The notes below the pieces were generated by a model. It was not told where the DNA came from. It saw only the letters and a list, made by a program, of their open reading frames with translations, and made no database searches. Positions 50,152 to 59,612 of a DNA stretch of 64,000 nucleotides are shown piece by piece. Source of the stretch: a bacterium (GTDB taxonomy: Bacteria; JACRDZ01; JAQUKH01); the NCBI GenBank assembly GCA_028719205.1, contig JAQUKH010000005.1, forward strand, positions 1 through 64,000, read 5' to 3'. How positions within the stretch are numbered: position 1 is the first letter of the stretch; each line of letters opens with the position of its first letter. The translations under genes were made by a program, and so were the position numbers.

Positions 50152-50238
50152 GCCGGAGTGGTGAAACTGGTAGACGCAGAGGACTCAAAATCCTCCGGAC
50201 GCAAGTTCATGTCGGTTCGATTCCGACCTCCGGCACCA
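50152..50238 (+). tRNA. tRNA-Leu (anticodon CAA)
   Basis: An 87-base class II cloverleaf: acceptor GCCGGAG/CTCCGGC, discriminator A, encoded CCA, anticodon stem GAGGA/TCCTC with loop CTCAAAA (CAA), a long variable arm, and T-arm GTCGGTTCGATTCCGAC. Its 3' half is repeated at 51396-51450 and, more degenerately, at 52014-52033 and 57155-57168. It therefore looks like an integration site. Confidence 0.96.
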
Positions 50239-50319
50239 TCAAATGTTGTTTATTTTCAATGAGTTGTGTCTTCCCAAGGTCTTTCTTATTCATCACTTAT
50301 TTCGGCTGTTTTATCCAAA

Positions 50320-50423
50320 CTGTGCCCAAAACGTGCCCATCAGAACACAAATGGACACATTTCCACACAACACATACCTCATAAAGATACATCCTTTACC
50401 CACAACATTATTGAAATTTCAAA
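50320..50423. repeat. Direct repeat A with GTGCCCA boxes (possible recombinase arm site)
   Basis: About 100 bases, starting TGTGCCCAAAACGTGCCCAT at 50321, that match 51246-51346. Both copies carry two GTGCCC/GTGCCT boxes 5 bases apart and end in ATAAAGATA-ATCCTTTA. They lie 82 bases after the tRNA-Leu end, and in the second copy about 130 bases before the tRNA tail. Closely spaced short repeats near a tRNA integration core resemble tyrosine-recombinase arm sites; this is inference. Confidence 0.55.
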
Positions 50424-50425
50424 AT

Positions 50426-51031
50426 TTAAAATCTATGATTTAAGGAAATTCCAATTGAAGGCATTCCTTTTGAATCGGGAAGCATTGCAAAACCCACCCG
50501 TGTGTTTTTCTCGTAAGGAGCATAAGCAAGTTTTGGACCTTCAATCATTCCAAATCCAAGACCTGCAATAGAACCACCTATATATCCCCAAGCCATACTT
50601 TGCCAAATATGTCTAGAATTGTTTGTATTAGAATAAGATATTCCCCCAACTGCTGTACCAACTGCCAGCCCAAGAGCCCCACCTAACCACATATCTCTAA
50701 TAAGAAATGCTCCAAAACCTGTTTGATCGTTATGAAAATCATAAAATCCAATACCTAAACCCAATGCTGTTCCACCAATTACGCCATATAATGCACCGTT
50801 TGTAATACGTTTTCTTTTTCCTTCACTGTTTAGTTTGTCTCTTCCCTCATATACCCGGATACTTCCAATTGATAAACCAAGAAGTGCCCCATGCTGCAAC
50901 TCTGCCCATCCATAGTTAATTATTGAGGGTCTATCTTTTGGATCAATAGTTCCAAAAAAATCATTGCCTGCCCTTGCATATCCTGTTAAAACAAAGATAA
51001 TAACGATTACAACTAAAGATTTATTTATCAT
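50426..51031 (-). CDS. Hypothetical secreted/outer-membrane glycine-rich protein
   Basis: A 201-residue protein with a signal peptide (about 1-21, ending GYARA). Repeated Gly-rich membrane-like segments follow (GALLGLSIGS, GALYGVIGGTALGLGIGF, GGALGLAVGTAVGG, GYIGGSIAGLGFGMIEG), resembling glycine-zipper stretches. The C-terminus ends SLNHRF, a plausible outer-membrane sorting signal. AGGAGGAGAA precedes the ATG. It is the only gene in the first cassette of the tRNA-Leu island. No family recognised; function unknown. Confidence 0.75.
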   Translation of the reverse strand: MINKSLVVIVIIFVLTGYARAGNDFFGTIDPKDRPSIINYGWAELQHGALLGLSIGSIRVYEGRDKLNSEGKRKRITNGALYGVIGGTALGLGIGFYDFHNDQTGFGAFLIRDMWLGGALGLAVGTAVGGISYSNTNNSRHIWQSMAWGYIGGSIAGLGFGMIEGPKLAYAPYEKNTRVGFAMLPDSKGMPSIGISLNHRF

Positions 51032-51245
51032 TTCTCCTCCTAATAGTTACTTTTATATTTATCGTGATTTTATAATCATGATCCACTTAAGTCAATATAA
51101 ATATTGTAAATTATTTATAAAACTACACAAAAAATCGGTATATTCCTAAAATAGACATTATAATATGGAATACTTATAATTATTAAGATTTATTATTTCC
51201 CAATGATATTCAATAAAAAAAGGAGAGCATTTCGCCCTCTCTTTT

Positions 51246-51346
51246 CTGTGCCTAAAACGTGCCCATCATTACAAAAAAAGGCACGTTTTCACAAATCTCC
51301 AGCCAACATGTTTCATAAAGATATATCCTTTATCAACAATATTTTG
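51246..51346. repeat. Direct repeat B, second copy of the GTGCCCA-box element
   Basis: Matches 50320-50423, beginning TGTGCCTAAAACGTGCCCAT at 51247. An extra inverted box, GGCACGT, follows at about 51280. See copy A. The stretch 51032-51245 between the glycine-rich gene and this repeat holds only AT-rich sequence and presumably the promoter of that gene. Confidence 0.55.
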
Positions 51347-51395
51347 CCTTATTTATTAAGCACTTACTTGAACCTCAAAAACACCCTGATTAGGG

Positions 51396-51450
51396 CTCAA
51401 AATCCTCCGGTCGCAAGATCATGTCGGTTCGATTCCGACCTCCGGCACCA
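51396..51450 (+). repeat. Duplicated 3' end of tRNA-Leu (attachment-site-like tail 2)
   Basis: These 55 bases match tRNA-Leu positions 50184-50238, from the anticodon loop through CCA, with only two differences. The 5' half of a tRNA is missing, so it is not a functional tRNA gene. Such tails mark the far end of elements that integrate into tRNA genes. Confidence 0.85.
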
Positions 51451-51585
51451 AAAATTTTCGTTTCACTCAAATTTTTATGTATTTAGTAATTTGTAATTAG
51501 TATTTTGGACGTGGAATAAGATTTATTAAAACGAAAATTTTTTCCTAAATACAAATTACACACACTCACACAAACTATATTTCCT

Positions 51586-51933
51586 ATGTTCGATTTTGAA
51601 AATCTGGAAGTCTACAAAAAAGCTAAAGAACTTAATAAGGAAATTTTAAGTTTTTAAGAAAAAACAAACAGATCGATTACTATTTGCGTGATCAATTACG
51701 AAGAGCATCAATAAGCATGGTTATTAATATTACAGAAGGAAGCGACCGATTTTCCAAGCGGATAAGAAAAACTTCTATATTATTGCCAGAGGTTCAACTT
51801 ATGAATGTGTTTCTTGCTGGAAATAATTTTAGAAGAAAAACATTTAACAGTACAAATATTTAAAAGTTTCTATCAAAAATTTGAAATTATATCTAAAATG
51901 CTTTTAGGCTTAATAAATAGTCAAAAGATTTGA
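51586..51933 (+). pseudogene. Four-helix-bundle protein of the 23S rRNA intervening-sequence family, broken
   Basis: The first frame gives MFDFENLEVYKKAKELNKEI and stops after about 23 codons. Shifting frame gives DYYLRDQLRRASISMVINIT, then EGSDRFSKR. After another shift comes NFYIIARGSTYECVS, followed by a C-terminal stretch ending with TGA at 51931-51933. This succession is the S23/IVP four-helix-bundle family, split by at least three frame changes or stops. These short proteins are common in mobile or rRNA-intervening contexts. It is the sole content of the second tRNA-tail cassette. Confidence 0.75.
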
Positions 51934-51974
51934 TGGTTTTCTTTAAGTGGTGACAAACACCAGCCTTCCGCCGC

Positions 51975-52033
51975 AGGAGTAAGGGGCAAAGCCCTATGTA
52001 GAGCGCATAGCTAGATTCCAACCCCCGGCACCA
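51975..52033 (+). repeat. Degenerate tRNA-Leu tail 3 with GGGGCAAAGCCC hairpin
   Basis: Bases 52014-52033 match 18 of 20 positions of the tRNA-Leu 3' end (GATTCCAACCCCCGGCACCA). The preceding AAGGGGCAAAGCCCTATGTA string recurs in similar form at 57115-57168, and similarity continues past both CCA ends (CTTTATGT.../CTTAATGT...). This pair brackets the four-gene operon at 52412-57003. Confidence 0.7.
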
Positions 52034-52115
52034 TTCCTTTATGTGTTTTTTCTTTTAAAATTTCAAGTTTATTTCTTGGCTGATTCTTGTTTTAATTATT
52101 GTTTCCCTTAAAATT

Positions 52116-52411: not shown

Positions 52412-52966
52412 ATGGAAGATCATCTTGTTGTAGACTTCTTAAATGATTTAAGACTCGAAATTCGTGAAACAAAAAAAGAGCGAGCAGATTTTATACGTCA
52501 GAAGTTTACCTATGTGATAGGATTATTAGGAATTGGAAGCATTTCAATTGGAAGTTTCAAACCCCTGATTCTTCTATATCTTGCTCCGATTATTGCGTTT
52601 ACTTTCGACCTATATATTGTTGGTGCAAGTTTTAAAATCAAAAGAGCAGGTGGTTTCCTTTGTCGGGAAGATTCTAAATCATCAAGTGAAGAAAAAAAAT
52701 GGGAGGAATGGGTTAGACAAAACAGGGATCCATTCCCCCAATTAGCAGGCTTGCTTGTGTCAATTATGGTACTCTTCGTATCAATGATAGTGCTTTGGTT
52801 AGAAGACAAAAATAATCTTTTTTATTGGGCATGGATCATAATTAATCTCCTGATTCTTATAGGAGTGTGGACATATAGTTATATACTTAATGAAGCAATT
52901 CACAAATTTGAAATAAAAAAAATAATAATTTTATTTATATCAATTTTTAAATCGAGGGGAAAATGA
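52412..52966 (+). CDS. Small four-helix membrane protein A of the island operon
   Basis: A 184-residue protein with a charged N-terminal helix (LRLEIRETKKERADFIRQK), a pair of membrane helices (about 32-50 and 50-72), and a cytoplasmic-type charged loop (about 75-108; EDSKSSSEEKKWEEWVRQ). A second helix pair (about 110-129 and 136-158) precedes a basic tail. Topology resembles small membrane sensor or effector-anchor proteins. Its last bases overlap the next gene by 4 (ATGA). No ribosome site is obvious. No family recognised; together with protein B it may form a membrane complex. Confidence 0.75.
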   Translation: MEDHLVVDFLNDLRLEIRETKKERADFIRQKFTYVIGLLGIGSISIGSFKPLILLYLAPIIAFTFDLYIVGASFKIKRAGGFLCREDSKSSSEEKKWEEWVRQNRDPFPQLAGLLVSIMVLFVSMIVLWLEDKNNLFYWAWIIINLLILIGVWTYSYILNEAIHKFEIKKIIILFISIFKSRGK

Positions 52967-53520
52967 TCGATTTATTGGAATATATAAAAATTCAATGGGA
53001 AGATATACATCATTCTCGAAATCAAGAATGGAGAGTTCTAGCAATAATTATTGGAATTTTTTATGCCCTTTTTAATATAAATCCAGCAAGCTACAACGAA
53101 TTACATATAGCAATTACAATTTTAGGATTAATTGCATGTGGAATGGGTGTATATATGAGTGTTATTCATTGGTTTCTTTTTTATAATAAACTGCATGTAA
53201 TTTCGGCTTGTGAAAAAGAATTAGGCCTTGAAGTAAATTTTTATAAACCACCCTTTGCCGTTCAAGGGCTAATATTATTAAGCTATTTTTTTGTTGCAAG
53301 TATTTTAATCGGATGGTTAACATGGCTAATATCAGAAACAATTTGGATTTCTTATTTCATTTTTACTTTATGTTTTTTAATCGGTTTTAGCATTTGTATC
53401 ATTATTAAAATCAGGATTCAAAAGAAAATAGAAGAGAATACATCGATTACTTTCAAAAAAGGGAAAAAAAATGAGGAAAAACCAAAAACAACAGTTTCCA
53501 TTAATAGCGGAATTGAATGA
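52963..53520 (+). CDS. Small four-helix membrane protein B of the island operon
   Basis: A 185-residue protein with GAGGGG before its ATG. After about 25 polar residues (YIKIQWEDIHHSRNQEWR) come four hydrophobic segments in two pairs (about 26-42, 47-70, 102-123, 128-150), then a Lys/Glu-rich tail. Its N-terminal IQWEDIHHSRNQEWRVL pattern, just ahead of the first membrane pair, looks like that of other small membrane proteins in defence-type operons, but I cannot name a family. It overlaps A by 4 bases and the cupin-like gene by 50 bases. Confidence 0.75.
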   Translation: MIDLLEYIKIQWEDIHHSRNQEWRVLAIIIGIFYALFNINPASYNELHIAITILGLIACGMGVYMSVIHWFLFYNKLHVISACEKELGLEVNFYKPPFAVQGLILLSYFFVASILIGWLTWLISETIWISYFIFTLCFLIGFSICIIIKIRIQKKIEENTSITFKKGKKNEEKPKTTVSINSGIE

Positions 53521-53965
53521 TTTGACTAATTGCCTCAATCAAATGGGAACAAAACCGCTTAAACTAATTGCTAATAAAGTTTATAGAGAAGTTAAAGAAA
53601 CCAAATGGGATGTTCCTATGTGGAGTTTTATAAGCAACAAAGGAATTATTAAAGATAAAAAGCTACTCACCAATCCAGAAGATACTTTTCAATTCTCACT
53701 TGCTAATCAACATTCAAAACAAGATTTTCATGTGCACAAAAAAATATTTGAGATTTATGTCTCTTATTCAAAAATAGAAATATTGTATATCAATAAAGAG
53801 AAAACAAAAGAATCCTTAAAAATTTTCAGAGGGATATTAATTGTCCCTCCTATGTTGATACATAAAATTAAATTGCACGGTATCACCTTTGTTTTCCAAG
53901 TTGGGGCTAAAGGATCTAAAGTCCATAATGATAAAAAAATATTAAAATCTTCAGCTTATAGATAG
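53471..53965 (+). CDS. Cupin-like protein of the island operon
   Basis: A 164-residue soluble protein. The segment FHVHKKIFEIYVSYSKIEIL has the His-x-His...Glu order of cupin motif 1, and IVPPMLIHKIKLHGITFVFQV resembles motif 2 with its His. A metal-binding beta-barrel is therefore plausible; role unknown (sugar or small-molecule binding, isomerase, dioxygenase). The ATG lies in the last 50 bases of gene B with a GGG ribosome string. A 170-base AT-rich gap, possibly with its own promoter, separates it from the large fusion gene. Confidence 0.7.
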   Translation: MRKNQKQQFPLIAELNDLTNCLNQMGTKPLKLIANKVYREVKETKWDVPMWSFISNKGIIKDKKLLTNPEDTFQFSLANQHSKQDFHVHKKIFEIYVSYSKIEILYINKEKTKESLKIFRGILIVPPMLIHKIKLHGITFVFQVGAKGSKVHNDKKILKSSAYR

Positions 53966-54135
53966 TATTGTTTTGCAACATAGGCTATCTTTTAATATAA
54001 AATTATATTTTATAAACTTAATATATTTGATCATTTGGCAATAATTTGCTTATAGCTATTTTCCAAATTATAAATAATGATGTTTGTTTTTTGTTTTTTA
54101 TAGTAAAATTATAATATCCAATTAAAGGGGTGTTC

Positions 54136-57003
54136 ATGTCTAGTTTAACATTTATTCACCTTTCTGATCTTCATATTGGGCAAAAGGACGAAAAGGGAAA
54201 TGAGCCGCCACAGGATTGCGCCGGACTTAATGCAAAAAAACTAATTAATGATTTACTAAAAATACGAGAAGAAAAATCTATCTCATTTCGTCCAGACGAA
54301 ACATTTTTTTTAATCTCTGGGGACATTACGAATACATGTAAGTGGGATCAATTCGAAATTGCAATAATGTTTATTGAGCAAATTCGGAAACAATATTCTC
54401 TTAAATTTGGGGGATTTGAGCTATCTTCTGATCACTTCATTTGCATTCCAGGAAACCATGATTTAAAATTAGCTGAAATAAAAAATCCCAAAGTATCTTT
54501 TTTTGAAAAATACTTGCCATTTAAATCTTTTTTGGATTTTGTAACAGACTATTCATCTTTTGCGCGTAGTTTTACTCACGAAAATCCATTTATTAATATA
54601 AGATTTGATACTCCACTTAGTACACAAATAATTTGGATTGATACTTGCAGGACTATAGATTATTTTGACTCTCGCCCCAAAGAAAAACGAAAATCTTTAT
54701 TACAGGGGACTTTCGGATATATAACAGAAGATTACTTAAGCTCCTTAGAAAAGACTCTTTTACTCGAAGATCAAAAAGTCCTCAGAATTGCTTTAATGCA
54801 TCATCCATTAACAGACTTATCTACTGGGGATAGTACCCCATCGGATGGAATTTCTATTAGTAAATTAATTTCTTGGCTAACAAAACATAAATTTGCTTTA
54901 ATTTTCTCTGGACATATTCATTATACCGAGGCAACTGGATATTCAAAACCTGATCATAAAATGCCAGAATACCCTGGAAGCATTAGTGAAAACAGTGTTG
55001 GGCATTCATTTCCAACAAAACCTTCTGTTGAACCAATTAGTTATGAAATAATTCAGATTGAAGAACACTTTGGAAAAACAGTTAGCAGGAAATATACCAG
55101 GCAGTTCTCATGGAGCACAAACACATTGGCAGATGAAAAAAACAAATGGACTGATAATAGCGAATCGAAAAATCCTATAAATCTACCAAAAATTTATAAT
55201 ACAAAAGATTTTCTAGGTATTAAAGGATCAAATGTATGGCACGTAATATCACATTGCAAACCGGGAAAATTTGAAAATTACGGAGCACAATCACCTGGTG
55301 AAGTCGTTAATAGTTTGATGCTTCACTTACTTAGCCAACCACAAAATGATTTAATTCATGTAACAGAAAAAACCAAAATTAATTGGAATATTTTTGCAGG
55401 AAACAATCTGCTATTTGTTATAGATTCTCCACATTTTAATCCTTATACAAGACAATTACTAACAGACTATAAAACCTATTTAGCTGGCGGGAATGTTGAA
55501 TTCATTGATGAACCGAATCAATTAAATGTTAAACAAAGAATTCAAATCGGCAACCAACCTCCTTTAGCTTCAACTAAACAACCTGAGCAAACTCTTTTTG
55601 ATTGTTATGAAGATTACTTACTGATTATGCGCCTTCCTGGCTTTGAACCTCATAAAAAAACCAAGAAGTTGGAAATAAAAGATCTTGACGAGAATAAAGT
55701 TATTTGGATAATTGCAGGTATCCATAGCAAAGCTAGCTATGCTGGAACACAGATATTTAATGCAGATAATTTGCAAAAATTCACTTCCAGTCTAAACAAA
55801 TTAAGTAATGGTAAAATTCCTAAATATTTTGAAATTGTATACAAAGTCCCTCAGGAAAAACCCAAAATAACTGATTTTTCCTCACTGGAACGCGTATATT
55901 TCAATGTTTTACGTCTAAAAAAAGATGTTGCAATGGGAGATGATTTACCATCCGGAGTTGCTGTTATCTTATCCTCTAATAAGAATGTTTGGGCAAAAAC
56001 TCCGGTCCATATAGTTCATTTAGATCCAGTTGCAGGATGCAATTATTCATGCCCAGAATGTATTGAAAATGAAATGAAAAATAAAAATTTATTTTTATCA
56101 ATTAAAAGTTGTATACGTATTCTTTGTGATTTAAAAAAAATTGGCTGTGAACGTATAAATTTTTATGGTGGTGAACCGACTCTTCATCCAGAATTTCCCG
56201 AGTTATTAAATGCTACTTCTGCAATGGGATATAATTCACTTCTAGTAACTAACGGTTCACAATTGCATAATCAAGATATAACTAATTCATTAATTTATGC
56301 TTCTTCCAAAATTCATATTCGGGTTTCCTTAGATGCACATAATCAAAATACTTACGAAAAGATTCATGGAATCAATAAAAATACAGCTGACGTTGGAGTG
56401 ATTAAAGATACGATTAAGTTTTTAATTAATCAGGGAATCCCTGTTAGTATTTCTATTTTGGTAAGGCCAGAAATTGTAAACGAATTAGAATCTGCCGTTA
56501 ACTTTTGGAGAAATGCCCATGCAACAGCAATAATACTTCGTCCCCTTACCGCAAGAAATGGCAAAGGACCTATCTTACCGAGTAAAACCGATGATTCTCA
56601 AACAATACTAAGTATACTGAATAAAAACAAGGGATTTGTTCTCACACCTTTTTGGTTTCATAATTTACTTCAAAATCACCCAGAAACTCAGAAAAAAGAT
56701 TATTATACGTGTTATTCTGGTTATTATCGTATAGCCATATCTCCATATAATGAATCATGTCCAAAAGCGGAAAAGGAAATAGAGAGTATCCCACTTACGC
56801 AAACCAACGATGCATGGATTTCCCTTTGCACATATCGCCGTTTTGACCCCAATTTTGGTTGTAAATACCCCTCAGATTTAAATCAATGGCTTAAAGATTA
56901 CAGACAGCAAATTTTAAATAAAATTGATCCTTCAAAAAACTGTAACGAAATATTTTGTTGCAGAGATGGATATAATCGCCAGATATCCTCTCTTACAAGG
57001 TAA
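54136..57003 (+). CDS. Metallophosphoesterase / radical SAM fusion protein
   Basis: A 955-residue protein. Residues 1-335 are a complete calcineurin-like metallophosphoesterase: SDLHIG (about 10-15), SGDITN (62), GNHD (106-109), ALMHHPL and GHIH (259-262). Residues about 340-620 form a middle region I cannot assign, with SPHFNPYTRQLL and IIAGIHSKASYAGT. From 625 a radical SAM domain: C635-C639-C642 in AGCNYSCPEC (CX3CX2C) and the SAM-contact FYGGEPTLHPEF (678). The C-terminal 150 residues are Cys-rich (YYTCYSGYY, ESCPKAE, SLCTYRRF, FGCKYP, NCNEIFCC), suggesting auxiliary cluster(s). Start chosen at the ATG with AAAGGGG 5 bases upstream; a GTG two codons earlier lacks this spacing. I know no characterised protein with this fusion. 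Confidence 0.88.
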   Translation: MSSLTFIHLSDLHIGQKDEKGNEPPQDCAGLNAKKLINDLLKIREEKSISFRPDETFFLISGDITNTCKWDQFEIAIMFIEQIRKQYSLKFGGFELSSDHFICIPGNHDLKLAEIKNPKVSFFEKYLPFKSFLDFVTDYSSFARSFTHENPFINIRFDTPLSTQIIWIDTCRTIDYFDSRPKEKRKSLLQGTFGYITEDYLSSLEKTLLLEDQKVLRIALMHHPLTDLSTGDSTPSDGISISKLISWLTKHKFALIFSGHIHYTEATGYSKPDHKMPEYPGSISENSVGHSFPTKPSVEPISYEIIQIEEHFGKTVSRKYTRQFSWSTNTLADEKNKWTDNSESKNPINLPKIYNTKDFLGIKGSNVWHVISHCKPGKFENYGAQSPGEVVNSLMLHLLSQPQNDLIHVTEKTKINWNIFAGNNLLFVIDSPHFNPYTRQLLTDYKTYLAGGNVEFIDEPNQLNVKQRIQIGNQPPLASTKQPEQTLFDCYEDYLLIMRLPGFEPHKKTKKLEIKDLDENKVIWIIAGIHSKASYAGTQIFNADNLQKFTSSLNKLSNGKIPKYFEIVYKVPQEKPKITDFSSLERVYFNVLRLKKDVAMGDDLPSGVAVILSSNKNVWAKTPVHIVHLDPVAGCNYSCPECIENEMKNKNLFLSIKSCIRILCDLKKIGCERINFYGGEPTLHPEFPELLNATSAMGYNSLLVTNGSQLHNQDITNSLIYASSKIHIRVSLDAHNQNTYEKIHGINKNTADVGVIKDTIKFLINQGIPVSISILVRPEIVNELESAVNFWRNAHATAIILRPLTARNGKGPILPSKTDDSQTILSILNKNKGFVLTPFWFHNLLQNHPETQKKDYYTCYSGYYRIAISPYNESCPKAEKEIESIPLTQTNDAWISLCTYRRFDPNFGCKYPSDLNQWLKDYRQQILNKIDPSKNCNEIFCCRDGYNRQISSLTR

Positions 57004-57114
57004 TATTTTATAGAAAATTACTCAACTTTACCCCCCATAGCCTTAAAATAGAAGGACTATGAATAAAAACAATAACTACAATCTAATCACCTTCTTTGCT
57101 GAAACTAATTTCCG

Positions 57115-57168
57115 CGGGGGGCAAAGCCCCTATGGAGAGCTAAGCGAAGATTAGGACCTCCGACACCA
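57115..57168 (+). repeat. Degenerate tRNA-Leu tail 4, end of the operon cassette
   Basis: Contains GGGGGGCAAAGCCCCTATGG, matching the string before tail 3, and ends GACCTCCGACACCA, 13 of 14 matches to the tRNA-Leu 3' end. The rest of the 385-base gap to the protease gene is AT-rich with no reading frame I can support. It marks the right boundary of the metallophosphoesterase-radical SAM cassette. Confidence 0.65.
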
Positions 57169-57388
57169 TACCTTAATGTATTTTTCTTTCAAATCAATAA
57201 TCATAAAAAAAGAAAATACTTTCAAATTTGATAAATAGTCCAAAATATTAGTTTTCATTTCTTCTCTTTATATTCATCAATATTACTTGACTAATATTAA
57301 ATACAGGATTAGAATTTTAATAATTTGTTTGAGCTTCTCAACAACAAAGAATTTCATATATTAATTGTTAGTACTATAAATAAAAAAA

Positions 57389-58420
57389 ATGAATAAATAT
57401 ATTTTATATTGTATTTTAATAATATCTTTGTTAATCATTCCAAAATTTATTTGGGCTAGAAGAGAAATACCCGATAACAATCTTGATTATCCTGTTCTTA
57501 TTACTTTATCTAATAAATATACTGGAAGTGGATTTTTTCTCCTATCCAAGAATATAGTTTATTTTGTAACAGCAAGACATGTATTATTTAGCGATCTTCC
57601 GAAACAGATATATAAGAAATATTTGCTTCCGAAAGATAAAATATTGCCAAACAACATCGATAAAATAAGTTATGATAATTATAATAAATCAATTATATTT
57701 AACGGACGAATGACAGAAGATGAGTTACGTACCCTAATTGATTGGGCAACAGATATCGAATTGAAAAATATTATTCAAGAAATTTATAATGAAACACAAT
57801 TTAAATTAATTTCTGATTCAGCCGAATTGCTTTATTATTCAAATAATAATCAAAAGGTAATAGATATTAACCTTTTAAACCTTTTTAATTCAAAAAAATT
57901 AAAGTATTCCGATAGTTGTGATATTGCTGTTGCAGAAATTGTTCAGTTTGCCAATGAAACAACTATTGTATGGAATACGAAAAATGTATCGATAAAGAAT
58001 ATAGAACCAGACATTAAAAAGGCAAGTGCGGTAACTAAATATGATTCTATCTTAGTTAGTAATGAAATTTATGTTTTTGGATACCCTACATCTTTAGGTT
58101 TAAAGGATTTACCTCAATTAGACAAGAAAAAACCTTTGCTTCGCAAGGGAATAATAGCCGGGAAAAATGATAAATTAAAAACTATAATAATAGATTGTCC
58201 AATTTATTATGGCAACAGTGGAGGTCCTGTTATCCAAATAGAAGATGTTGATGCTAGCATGAAAGTCTTTACTGTTATTGGAATAATTAGCGAATTTGTT
58301 CCTTTTGTTGAAGAGCTACATAGTTCAAAATACGGTTACACAAATACTAATATTTCAAATTCTGGTTATGCAATAGTTGTTCCAATAGATTTTATTCTCG
58401 AACTAATTGAGTCAAAATAA
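57389..58420 (+). CDS. Secreted trypsin-like serine protease
   Basis: A 343-residue protein with an N-terminal signal (about 1-23). The chymotrypsin-fold triad is visible: His in VTARHVLF, Asp in DSCDIAVAEI, and Ser in YGNSGGPVIQ (about residue 277). A long insertion (about 70-170) lies between the His and Asp regions. The ending, with the segment VVPIDFILELI, lacks a PDZ domain. Base composition is as AT-rich as the island operon, so it may be part of the same acquired region. No ribosome site is clear before the ATG. Confidence 0.85.
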   Translation: MNKYILYCILIISLLIIPKFIWARREIPDNNLDYPVLITLSNKYTGSGFFLLSKNIVYFVTARHVLFSDLPKQIYKKYLLPKDKILPNNIDKISYDNYNKSIIFNGRMTEDELRTLIDWATDIELKNIIQEIYNETQFKLISDSAELLYYSNNNQKVIDINLLNLFNSKKLKYSDSCDIAVAEIVQFANETTIVWNTKNVSIKNIEPDIKKASAVTKYDSILVSNEIYVFGYPTSLGLKDLPQLDKKKPLLRKGIIAGKNDKLKTIIIDCPIYYGNSGGPVIQIEDVDASMKVFTVIGIISEFVPFVEELHSSKYGYTNTNISNSGYAIVVPIDFILELIESK

Positions 58421-58553
58421 ATTTTGGCCTCACAATTCATCTGAATATTAACCACCTTTTGGTGTCGGTAACCGGCAGGCAAGCTTAAATATTATTTGCT
58501 CATTGTAAAGTTTGTAAAATATGGAATTATATAATAATTATAAAAGGAGGCTA

Positions 58554-59612
58554 ATGTTGCCTAGCTATAAGAAATTGTTTTCACTCTTTCTTTTCTTGAT
58601 TTTGATACAAGTCAATTGTGCCCATACTCCCCAAACCTTAAAAGATTGGGTAAAAGAAAGGGGCTATACTTATTACACAGACTATTCAACAATAAACATT
58701 TTAGGTTACGAAGACCAAAAAGGCAAATTACAAAGCAATCCATACTTATCTGTATCTTCTGAAAAAGGAAATGTCCCAGATGTTTCGCAAGAAAAAAAAC
58801 ATATATTTAAAATTGAAGGTAAAGCCGAAATTGAACGCTTTTTAAATACTGCTACAGAAGGCAATATAACAGGCAAATTTGAAAGAAGTGCCGAAGCAGA
58901 GATAAAATTGGAAATGCCCTTCAAAAAAGAGGCATCAGCCTTTATTCCACTCGGCCCCTGTGATAATCGAGTAATATCAATTGTTACTAAGGTATTAAAC
59001 ACAGGGAGCATGAAATTAAGGATTAAGGATAAAAGCGGTATTGATATAACAAGCACATTTAAGCCAATACTTGCTAAAACTGAGAGTGGAGTTCTAATTG
59101 AATCTGGAGATGAAATAACCATTTCCGGGAATAACTTCTATGTTGGTTATCAAACAGAGTTAAAACATTGTTATTTGGTTAAAGAAAAAGAAATAATCCT
59201 TAAACTAAGGGAACAATATCATGACAGTGAACTTGGTATTTATGCATTACTTTCTGATTACAGGGAGGAAAATTTTAGGGGAGAAGCATTAGTATATATA
59301 ATCCCAAGTAATTTTACTGATTCTAAAGCAATTGGGGAAAATATAAACTGGACACCTTTTGGTGAAATAAATGTAAAGGCAGGGAATCCATGGGAAGATG
59401 CTATAAACCTTTCTGATAAAAAAGGCAACGAAGAGCCTTGGAGGTTTACAACTTCAAATGGATTTAAATTAAAATTTGGAGACCATTTAGGCCTTCCAGG
59501 AATTTCTGGGATATCAGGATTTTACATAGAGGTTGTATCATTGAACAAGGAAGAGGTAAAATTAAAAGTGCAACATATAAAATATGAAGTTGTAGAGAAA
59601 AAGGAGAAATGA
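58554..59612 (+). CDS. Hypothetical secreted protein, probable lipoprotein
   Basis: From the ATG at 58554 (AAAGGAGG just upstream) the 352-residue product starts MLPSYKKLFSLFLFLILIQ and reaches a possible lipobox Cys in IQVNCAHTP. The -1 residue is Asn rather than Gly or Ala, so lipidation is uncertain. The mature part is soluble and rich in beta-type segments (GKAEIERFLNTATEGNITGKF; SGDEITISGNNFYVGYQTEL). No family recognised. It follows the protease by 134 bases on the same strand; the spacer contains only low-complexity filler. Confidence 0.7.
   Translation: MLPSYKKLFSLFLFLILIQVNCAHTPQTLKDWVKERGYTYYTDYSTINILGYEDQKGKLQSNPYLSVSSEKGNVPDVSQEKKHIFKIEGKAEIERFLNTATEGNITGKFERSAEAEIKLEMPFKKEASAFIPLGPCDNRVISIVTKVLNTGSMKLRIKDKSGIDITSTFKPILAKTESGVLIESGDEITISGNNFYVGYQTELKHCYLVKEKEIILKLREQYHDSELGIYALLSDYREENFRGEALVYIIPSNFTDSKAIGENINWTPFGEINVKAGNPWEDAINLSDKKGNEEPWRFTTSNGFKLKFGDHLGLPGISGISGFYIEVVSLNKEEVKLKVQHIKYEVVEKKEK

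What the first reader, a model, noticed from the sequence alone, without database searches (positions are those of the whole stretch)
54136..57003. Metallophosphoesterase-radical SAM fusion, 955 residues, with an unassigned middle region
The sequence directly shows all five metallophosphoesterase motifs (DLH, GD, GNHD, HH, GHIH) and, in the same frame, a radical SAM CX3CX2C with GGEP and a Cys-rich C-terminus that could bind further clusters. About 280 residues between them fit no domain I recognise. Joining a phosphoester-cleaving metal enzyme to a radical enzyme in one chain suggests that a phosphorylated substrate is processed in two steps, or that a nucleotide signal gates the radical reaction. 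I know of no characterised example.
Basis: partly seen in the sequence, partly recalled or inferred. Interest (0 to 1): 0.9.

Follow-up and report, generated by a model that had tools for sequence, protein, structure and literature searches.

The report
Defence-type phosphoesterase fused to radical enzyme
A single bacterial protein joins a phosphate-bond-cutting enzyme of a kind known from anti-virus defence, a sensor-like middle part, and a radical-making enzyme; this combination was found in no other genome searched and sits in a recently acquired stretch of DNA, so it may be a new sort of bacterial immune protein, though that is not proven.

Summary
One intact 955-codon frame (54136-57003, +) carries an N-terminal calcineurin-like metallophosphoesterase (MPE, residues 5-262), a middle region and a C-terminal radical SAM domain (632-789) with seven C-terminal cysteines. 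Coding signal is uniform, so it is not an assembly join. (2) The 'unassigned' middle is homologous to the C-terminal domain of about 420-residue winged-helix/membrane regulators of KSB1, Neomarinimicrobiota, Ignavibacteria and Calditrichaceae (HHalign 1.5e-7; 60 shuffles far below). (3) The gene is accessory: 90-bp direct repeats ending in a tRNA-Leu 3' end flank its four-gene segment, and the same-genus genome lacks it. The radical SAM part is not a viperin; it resembles proteins with an auxiliary-cluster C-terminus. No second copy of the three-part architecture was found, within limited searches. Best reading: a single-chain biological-conflict (anti-phage-like) effector; defence itself is inferred, not shown. 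New variant of a known kind.

The parts
54136..57003 (+). The three-part gene, 955 codons (ATG 54136, TAA end 57003)
   Evidence: Open frame, ribosome-binding site, uniform codon-position GC
54148..54921 (+). Metallophosphoesterase domain, residues 5-262, DS-8/DS-9-like
   Evidence: Pfam 2.6e-14; only NCBIfam matches are DS9_1_antiphage 1.9e-22 and DS8_antiphage 1.1e-14
55156..55995 (+). Middle region, residues 341-620; residues 407-572 homologous to the C-terminal domain of winged-helix/membrane regulators
   Evidence: HHalign prob 93.9, E 1.5e-7, score 54.9 against 60 shuffles at most 19.4; HMM without the window E=3.3e-4 in 2135 sequences
56029..56502 (+). Radical SAM core, residues 632-789 (CX3CX2C 635-642, GGEP 678-681)
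   Evidence: Pfam 5.5e-14; motifs
56710..56961 (+). Cys-rich C-terminus, residues 859-942, probable auxiliary Fe-S cluster (twitch-like); candidate ligands C859, C875 or C898, C936, C941
   Evidence: Alignment with rSAM proteins L014 and L019, which keep four cysteines there
52412..52966 (+). Hydrophobic, probable multi-span membrane protein, 184 aa, first gene of the flanked segment
   Evidence: ORF; no family match; no tblastn hit in plasmids
52963..53520 (+). Second hydrophobic, probable membrane protein, 185 aa, overlapping the first by 4 nt
   Evidence: ORF; weak, sub-threshold Pfam 8xMP match, E=0.0038
53471..53965 (+). 164-aa protein, cupin-like by eye only
   Evidence: ORF; no family match
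51966..52060 (+). Left direct repeat, contains a degenerate tRNA-Leu 3' end (GATTCCAACCCCCGGCACCA)
   Evidence: Local alignment score 81 against 57110-57194, 0 of 1000 shuffles reach it
57110..57194 (+). Right direct repeat, degenerate tRNA-Leu 3' end (GACCTCCGACACCA)
   Evidence: Same test; related repeats lie beside tRNA-Leu genes elsewhere in the genome
50152..50238 (+). tRNA-Leu(CAA), presumed original integration target
   Evidence: ARAGORN
51396..51450 (+). 55-nt copy of the tRNA-Leu 3' half (96%), att-like
   Evidence: blastn

Best explanation
The gene encodes a single-chain biological-conflict (anti-phage-like) effector carried on a horizontally acquired segment. Shown here: domain make-up, the DS-8/DS-9 affinity of the phosphoesterase, the sensor-domain homology of the middle, and the accessory-island setting. 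Inferred: the middle domain senses an infection-linked ligand or protein and switches the two enzymes on; the N-terminal phosphoesterase cleaves a nucleotide or nucleotide signal (the role predicted for its relatives); the C-terminal radical SAM enzyme, with one auxiliary Fe-S cluster, chemically changes a second target, most likely a peptide/protein or nucleotide. The middle and radical parts take the place held in DS-8-type proteins by a NACHT/STAND NTPase.
For: MPE region matches only DS9_1_antiphage (1.9e-22) and DS8_antiphage (1.1e-14) among 18,950 NCBIfam models at E<=0.01. The best plasmid relatives include DS-9A itself beside Hachiman and a restriction gene (DS9 model 4.5e-172), an MPE-AAA/STAND protein (DS8 model 4.6e-56), an MPE-GAAD protein next to a GASH gene and an MPE with a pYEATS-like end near a SIR2 gene. 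In 386 diverse genomes, 21 (the window's own included) hold a DS9-model match; the four other matches in frames over 1000 aa are all MPE-NACHT or MPE-STAND, two with a C-terminal FGE-sulfatase domain, one beside a type I restriction enzyme (read by eye). MPE active-site mutations abolish DS-8 and DS-9 defence (PMC13092281). Calcineurin-type phosphoesterases are the commonest effector of GAP1-N1 conflict systems (PMC7159879). Middle domain homology. Accessory island: absent from same-genus G001, GC 0.26-0.33 against 0.38-0.44 to the left, flanking direct repeats.
Against: No known defence gene was recognised among the genes scanned beside it. The two enzyme matches are domain-level only: every NCBIfam equivalog cut-off is missed by a wide margin. 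The middle domain's relatives are regulators, not defence proteins, and lack the MPE and rSAM. Only one example of the architecture is in hand, so co-evolution of the three parts cannot be tested. Not every plasmid MPE hit had a defence setting (L095).
Confidence: 0.5

Rival explanations
1. A two-step tailoring or maturation enzyme: the radical SAM domain modifies a peptide, nucleotide or cofactor precursor and the phosphoesterase removes or opens a phosphate on the same substrate; the middle domain binds the substrate.
For: Radical SAM proteins with auxiliary-cluster ends are typically maturases (general knowledge); the closest NCBIfam model to the rSAM part is a tungsten-cofactor maturase (2.5e-18, far under its cut-off). 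The genome has 65 radical SAM matches. A cupin-like small protein lies upstream (by eye).
Against: The MPE clade is associated with conflict proteins; no substrate peptide or pathway gene is recognisable next door; the gene is accessory and cassette-like.
Confidence: 0.25
2. A signalling enzyme: the middle domain senses a ligand and tunes the phosphoesterase, which degrades a nucleotide messenger, while the radical SAM domain serves as a redox or SAM-level sensor and does no modification.
For: The middle domain's relatives sit behind a winged-helix domain and a hydrophobic (probable membrane) segment, i.e. as sensors. DS-8 MPE is likened to a cGAMP-degrading human enzyme (PMC13092281).
Against: The rSAM active-site motifs are intact, which a mere sensor would not need.
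Confidence: 0.15
3. A viperin-like antiviral: the radical SAM part makes a chain-terminating nucleotide and the phosphoesterase trims it to the active form.
For: PADLOC viperin models match the rSAM core at 5.5e-20; nucleotide chemistry would suit the MPE.
Against: NCBIfam viperin cut-off (180 bits) missed at 59.8; viperins compared have CNYHCRFCF and no C-terminal cysteines, the window has CNYSCPECI and seven; in the tree the window sits with auxiliary-cluster proteins, though weakly (84/87).
Confidence: 0.06
4. A chance or decaying fusion, or an assembly join, with no joint function.
For: Single genome; no orthologue found.
Against: Uniform coding bias and intact motifs in all parts; a homologous domain, not a ragged seam, lies between the enzymes; host-flanked contig.
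Confidence: 0.04

Closest known systems
DS-8 anti-phage protein (MPE-NACHT; NCBIfam NF053861, PMC13092281)
   Same: Long single chain that begins with the same type of metallophosphoesterase; a switch/sensor-like part follows
   Different: DS-8 has a NACHT NTPase; the window has a different middle domain and a radical SAM enzyme and no recognised NTPase
DS-9 anti-phage system (MPE plus HAD gene; NCBIfam NF053862)
   Same: Closest MPE family by score (residues 4-271, 79.8 bits)
   Different: DS-9A has an N-terminal Pua-like domain and a HAD partner gene; neither was seen here; score far below the 420-bit cut-off
Calcineurin-type effectors of GAP1-N1 GTPase-centred conflict systems (PMC7159879)
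   Same: Phosphoesterase used as a variable effector domain with exchangeable partners
   Different: No GAP1, GASH or DO-GTPase gene recognised beside the window gene, and no GAAD adaptor
Prokaryotic viperins
   Same: Radical SAM core similarity
   Different: Single cluster, no auxiliary cysteines, other motif
Auxiliary-cluster (SPASM/twitch) radical SAM proteins such as L014 and L019
   Same: Similar core and a cysteine-bearing C-terminus ending in a C-x3/4-C pair
   Different: Stand-alone 350-430 aa proteins without MPE or the middle domain
Winged-helix/membrane regulators of KSB1, Neomarinimicrobiota, Ignavibacteria and Calditrichaceae (no Pfam family)
   Same: C-terminal domain homologous to the window's residues about 407-572
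   Different: There it follows a winged-helix domain and a hydrophobic segment; the window has extra residues around 432-439 and 504-518

Membership tests
Calcineurin-like metallophosphoesterase (PF00149) | Score over gathering cut-off and the five metal/phosphate motifs | tested here: met
   54.5 bits against 21.5; motifs
Radical SAM superfamily (PF04055) | CX3CX2C, GGE-type motif, score over cut-off | tested here: met
   53.1 bits against 29.5; C635, C639, C642
SPASM/twitch radical SAM | C-terminal cysteines binding at least one auxiliary Fe-S cluster | tested here: inconclusive
   Seven cysteines; four align with those of L014/L019, but the strict SPASM spacing CX2CX5CX3C is absent
DS-8 anti-phage protein | NACHT domain after the MPE; NF053861 cut-off 790 bits | tested here: not met
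   53 bits; no NACHT by Pfam
DS-9 anti-phage system | NF053862 cut-off 420 bits, N-terminal Pua-like domain, HAD partner gene | tested here: not met
   79.8 bits; neither Pua-like nor HAD found
Viperin (prokaryotic) | NF038283 cut-off 180 bits; CNYxCxFC motif; no auxiliary cluster | tested here: not met
   59.8 bits; CNYSCPEC; seven C-terminal Cys
GAP1-N1 GTPase-centred conflict system | GAP1, GASH and DO-GTPase genes next to the effector | tested here: not met
   None recognised by Pfam, PADLOC or NCBIfam in the six genes 52412-59612; farther genes not scanned for these
Anti-phage defence system (functional class) | Protects cells from phage | not testable with these tools
   Needs a plating experiment
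Unnamed sensor-like domain of winged-helix/membrane regulators | Sequence homology over the domain | tested here: met
   HHalign 1.5e-7 over 135 columns, controls far below

The most novel reading that the evidence does not exclude
A new type of bacterial immune protein in which a sensor domain directly couples a DS-9-type nucleotide-cleaving phosphoesterase to an auxiliary-cluster radical SAM enzyme that is not a viperin, so that radical chemistry acts as a second, physically linked effector of defence.
Probability: 0.3. Interest if true: 0.8.

Novelty: new variant of a known kind. Interest (0 to 1): 0.6.

Why it matters
Metallophosphoesterases were only recently shown to be needed in anti-phage defence (DS-8, DS-9), and their targets are unknown. 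A relative fused to a radical SAM enzyme narrows the options: the fused enzyme's product or substrate would be a direct clue to what this class of phosphoesterase works on. It would also add, if confirmed, a second radical SAM route beside viperin in bacterial immunity. Independently, it shows a middle domain shared between such an enzyme and membrane-bound regulators.

Tried and rejected
(1) Assembly join or two merged genes: rejected by uniform codon-position GC, host flanks and the homologous middle domain. (2) Viperin: rejected on motif, cut-off and cysteines, although PADLOC lists viperin first. (3) Methylglyoxal synthase similarity of the middle (E=0.028): taken as chance. (4) Streptomyces plasmid hit H1 (query 605-950) and phage-record hit H18: read in full; both are stand-alone radical SAM proteins. 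(5) Full-architecture relatives: none in plasmids or phages by tblastn, in 60 genomes (full length), 300 genomes (residues 1-620), 386 genomes (middle by BLAST) or 290, 82 and 366 genomes (middle by profile). The genome sets overlap. Pattern scans of IMG/VR and GTDB confirmed nothing, but they see only sequences sharing short motifs. (6) The first profiles A1 and A2 were artificially varied copies of the window's own middle region, partly steered by remembered motifs; A11 was likewise a steered bait. They served only as bait; the hit L024 was weak (E=0.005 per genome over 290 genomes, i.e. expected by chance once or so). The homology claim rests only on later tests with real sequences. (7) Structure: the window's middle region folded poorly (mean pLDDT 53) and its Foldseek result is meaningless. 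The family model is good (pLDDT 88.4, pTM 0.87) but has no PDB match below E=0.06; the only leads with probability over 0.7 were BcsB and an archaeal S-layer domain. (8) The three upstream genes have no plasmid relatives by tblastn. (9) Small ORFs after the gene as a peptide substrate: nothing convincing.

Full report
WHAT IS THERE. The ORF at 54136-57003 (+) is intact, 955 residues, with a ribosome-binding site (AAGGGG) and an ATG start. Pfam finds Metallophos at residues 5-262 (2.6e-14) and Radical_SAM at 632-789 (5.5e-14). All named motifs are present. The third-codon-position GC is 0.13-0.26 in every block of 106 codons, so one reading frame is under one coding regime.

THE PHOSPHOESTERASE IS OF THE DEFENCE TYPE. 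Given alone, the MPE region matches only two NCBIfam models at E<=0.01: DS9_1_antiphage (1.9e-22) and DS8_antiphage (1.1e-14). Both are far under their equivalog cut-offs, so the protein is neither DS-8 nor DS-9. In the source paper, mutation of the MPE catalytic residues abolished protection by both systems, and the targets remain unknown (PMC13092281). Plasmid relatives found by tblastn are largely modular conflict proteins: a true DS-9A next to a HAD gene, Hachiman and restriction genes (L022), MPE-AAA/STAND (L094), MPE with pYEATS-like end near SIR2 (L021), MPE-GAAD next to GASH (L098), TPR-MPE near an integrase (L097). One (L095) has an ordinary neighbourhood. A survey of 386 diverse genomes with the DS9 model rang in 21, the window's own included. 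The four other matches lying in frames over 1000 aa are MPE-NACHT-FGE (two) and MPE-STAND (two); one of these lies beside a type I restriction enzyme, read by eye. None of the surveyed loci holds a radical SAM relative or the middle domain (many of these loci extend only about 1.5 kb to each side). Kaur et al. describe calcineurin-superfamily phosphoesterases as the commonest effector of GAP1-N1 GTPase-centred conflict systems and predict nucleotidyl phosphodiesterase activity (PMC7159879).

THE MIDDLE REGION IS A SENSOR-LIKE DOMAIN WITHOUT A NAME. No Pfam or convincing PDB-sequence hit was found, and no NCBIfam match covers it among those listed. A bait profile led to L024, a 419-aa protein with a winged-helix N-terminus (weak Trans_reg_C) and a hydrophobic segment. 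Its family was collected from 31 of 82 genomes of one phylum and, in GTDB, from 15 loci labelled candidate division KSB1, Neomarinimicrobiota, Ignavibacteriae, Calditrichaceae or unnamed bacterium. Because the bait was steered, I tested the homology with real sequences only. An HMM of the family without the window ranks the window protein first among 2135 sequences (E=3.3e-4; best of 2000 shuffles 0.0077). HHalign of 15 family members against window residues 341-625 gives probability 93.9, E=1.5e-7, score 54.9 over residues 407-572; MPE 13.7, rSAM 15.6, best of 60 shuffles 19.4. The shared marks are W-x2-F, DYxLIxxLPG, IIAG and GKxPxYFE in the same order. The family domain is predicted with confidence as an alpha/beta fold (pLDDT 88.4) with no convincing PDB match. 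In the regulators it follows a hydrophobic segment, so it is probably an input domain; that role in the window protein is an inference.

THE RADICAL SAM PART IS NOT A VIPERIN. PADLOC's best model is viperin, but the NCBIfam viperin cut-off is missed (59.8 of 180 bits), the motif differs, and two Nostocales viperins have no C-terminal cysteines where the window has seven. Alignment with L014 and L019 indicates an auxiliary-cluster end: C859, then C875 or C898, then C936 and C941. A tree of 14 sequences places the window with such proteins with weak support (84/87) and long branches. The substrate class cannot be read from sequence.

SETTING. tRNA-Leu(CAA) lies at 50152-50238. A 55-nt copy of its 3' half is at 51396-51450. 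Two direct repeats of about 90 nt, each containing a degenerate tRNA-Leu 3' end, lie at 51966-52060 and 57110-57194 (alignment score 81, best of 1000 shuffles 44). They flank exactly four genes: two hydrophobic, probably membrane proteins, a 164-aa protein and the MPE-rSAM gene. The same kind of repeat occurs beside tRNA-Leu(GAG) and tRNA-Leu(TAA) elsewhere in the genome. GC is 0.26-0.33 here against 0.38-0.44 to the left. The same-genus genome G001 has the flanking genes but no match to this segment; its tRNA-Leu(CAA) is followed directly by the four-helix (S23-like) gene that lies downstream of the 55-nt copy in the window. The gene is therefore accessory and probably mobile. No integrase was seen in the segment.

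HOW IT PROBABLY WORKS. Shown: an intact phosphoesterase site, an intact radical SAM site, a sensor-like domain between them, and an accessory location. Inferred: the middle domain responds to a trigger and releases or aligns both enzymes; the phosphoesterase cleaves a nucleotide or nucleotide signal; the radical enzyme modifies a second target. The order MPE-switch-enzyme parallels MPE-NACHT-FGE proteins of the same MPE clade. I give this conflict reading about 0.5. The main rival is a two-step maturase (0.25).

LIMITS. One example only. The pattern-based GTDB and IMG/VR scans are insensitive, the sampled genomes are a small share of known diversity and the sets overlap, so 'unique' means 'not found here'. 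No function has been tested. The organism's name was not available.

Noticed in passing
window 50152-52060 and 57110-57194; G000 contigs C7 and C15: Degenerate tRNA-Leu 3'-end repeats with a shared GGGGC-AAGCCCC stem occur beside at least three tRNA-Leu genes of this genome, suggesting an integrating element family that targets tRNA-Leu; no integrase was seen next to the copies in the window.
   Followed up: partly
window 51580-51940; L078 2394-2820: A four-helix-bundle (S23-like) gene follows tRNA-Leu(CAA) directly in the same-genus genome; in the window its copy lies behind the duplicated tRNA 3' half, displaced by about 1.2 kb, and looks frame-broken.
   Followed up: partly
window 57389-58420: Trypsin-like protease with an apparent signal peptide (Pfam Trypsin_2 9.3e-8; PADLOC PDC-S45 3.2e-10), followed by a 363-aa lipoprotein-like protein without family match.
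   Followed up: no
L079-L093 and L026-L055: A large, unnamed family of winged-helix/membrane/sensor proteins of about 420 aa in KSB1, Neomarinimicrobiota, Ignavibacteria and Calditrichaceae, up to nine matches per genome, with a confidently predicted alpha/beta C-terminal domain lacking a PDB match.
   Followed up: partly
L124 4981-8283 and L125 5322-8519: MPE-NACHT-FGE-sulfatase proteins; L125 also carries a second NACHT/FGE-type protein (methyltransferase-like N-terminus, read by eye) just upstream.
   Followed up: partly
whole genome G000: 65 radical SAM domain matches in a 2.6-Mb genome (Pfam PF04055), a high number for its size.
   Followed up: no
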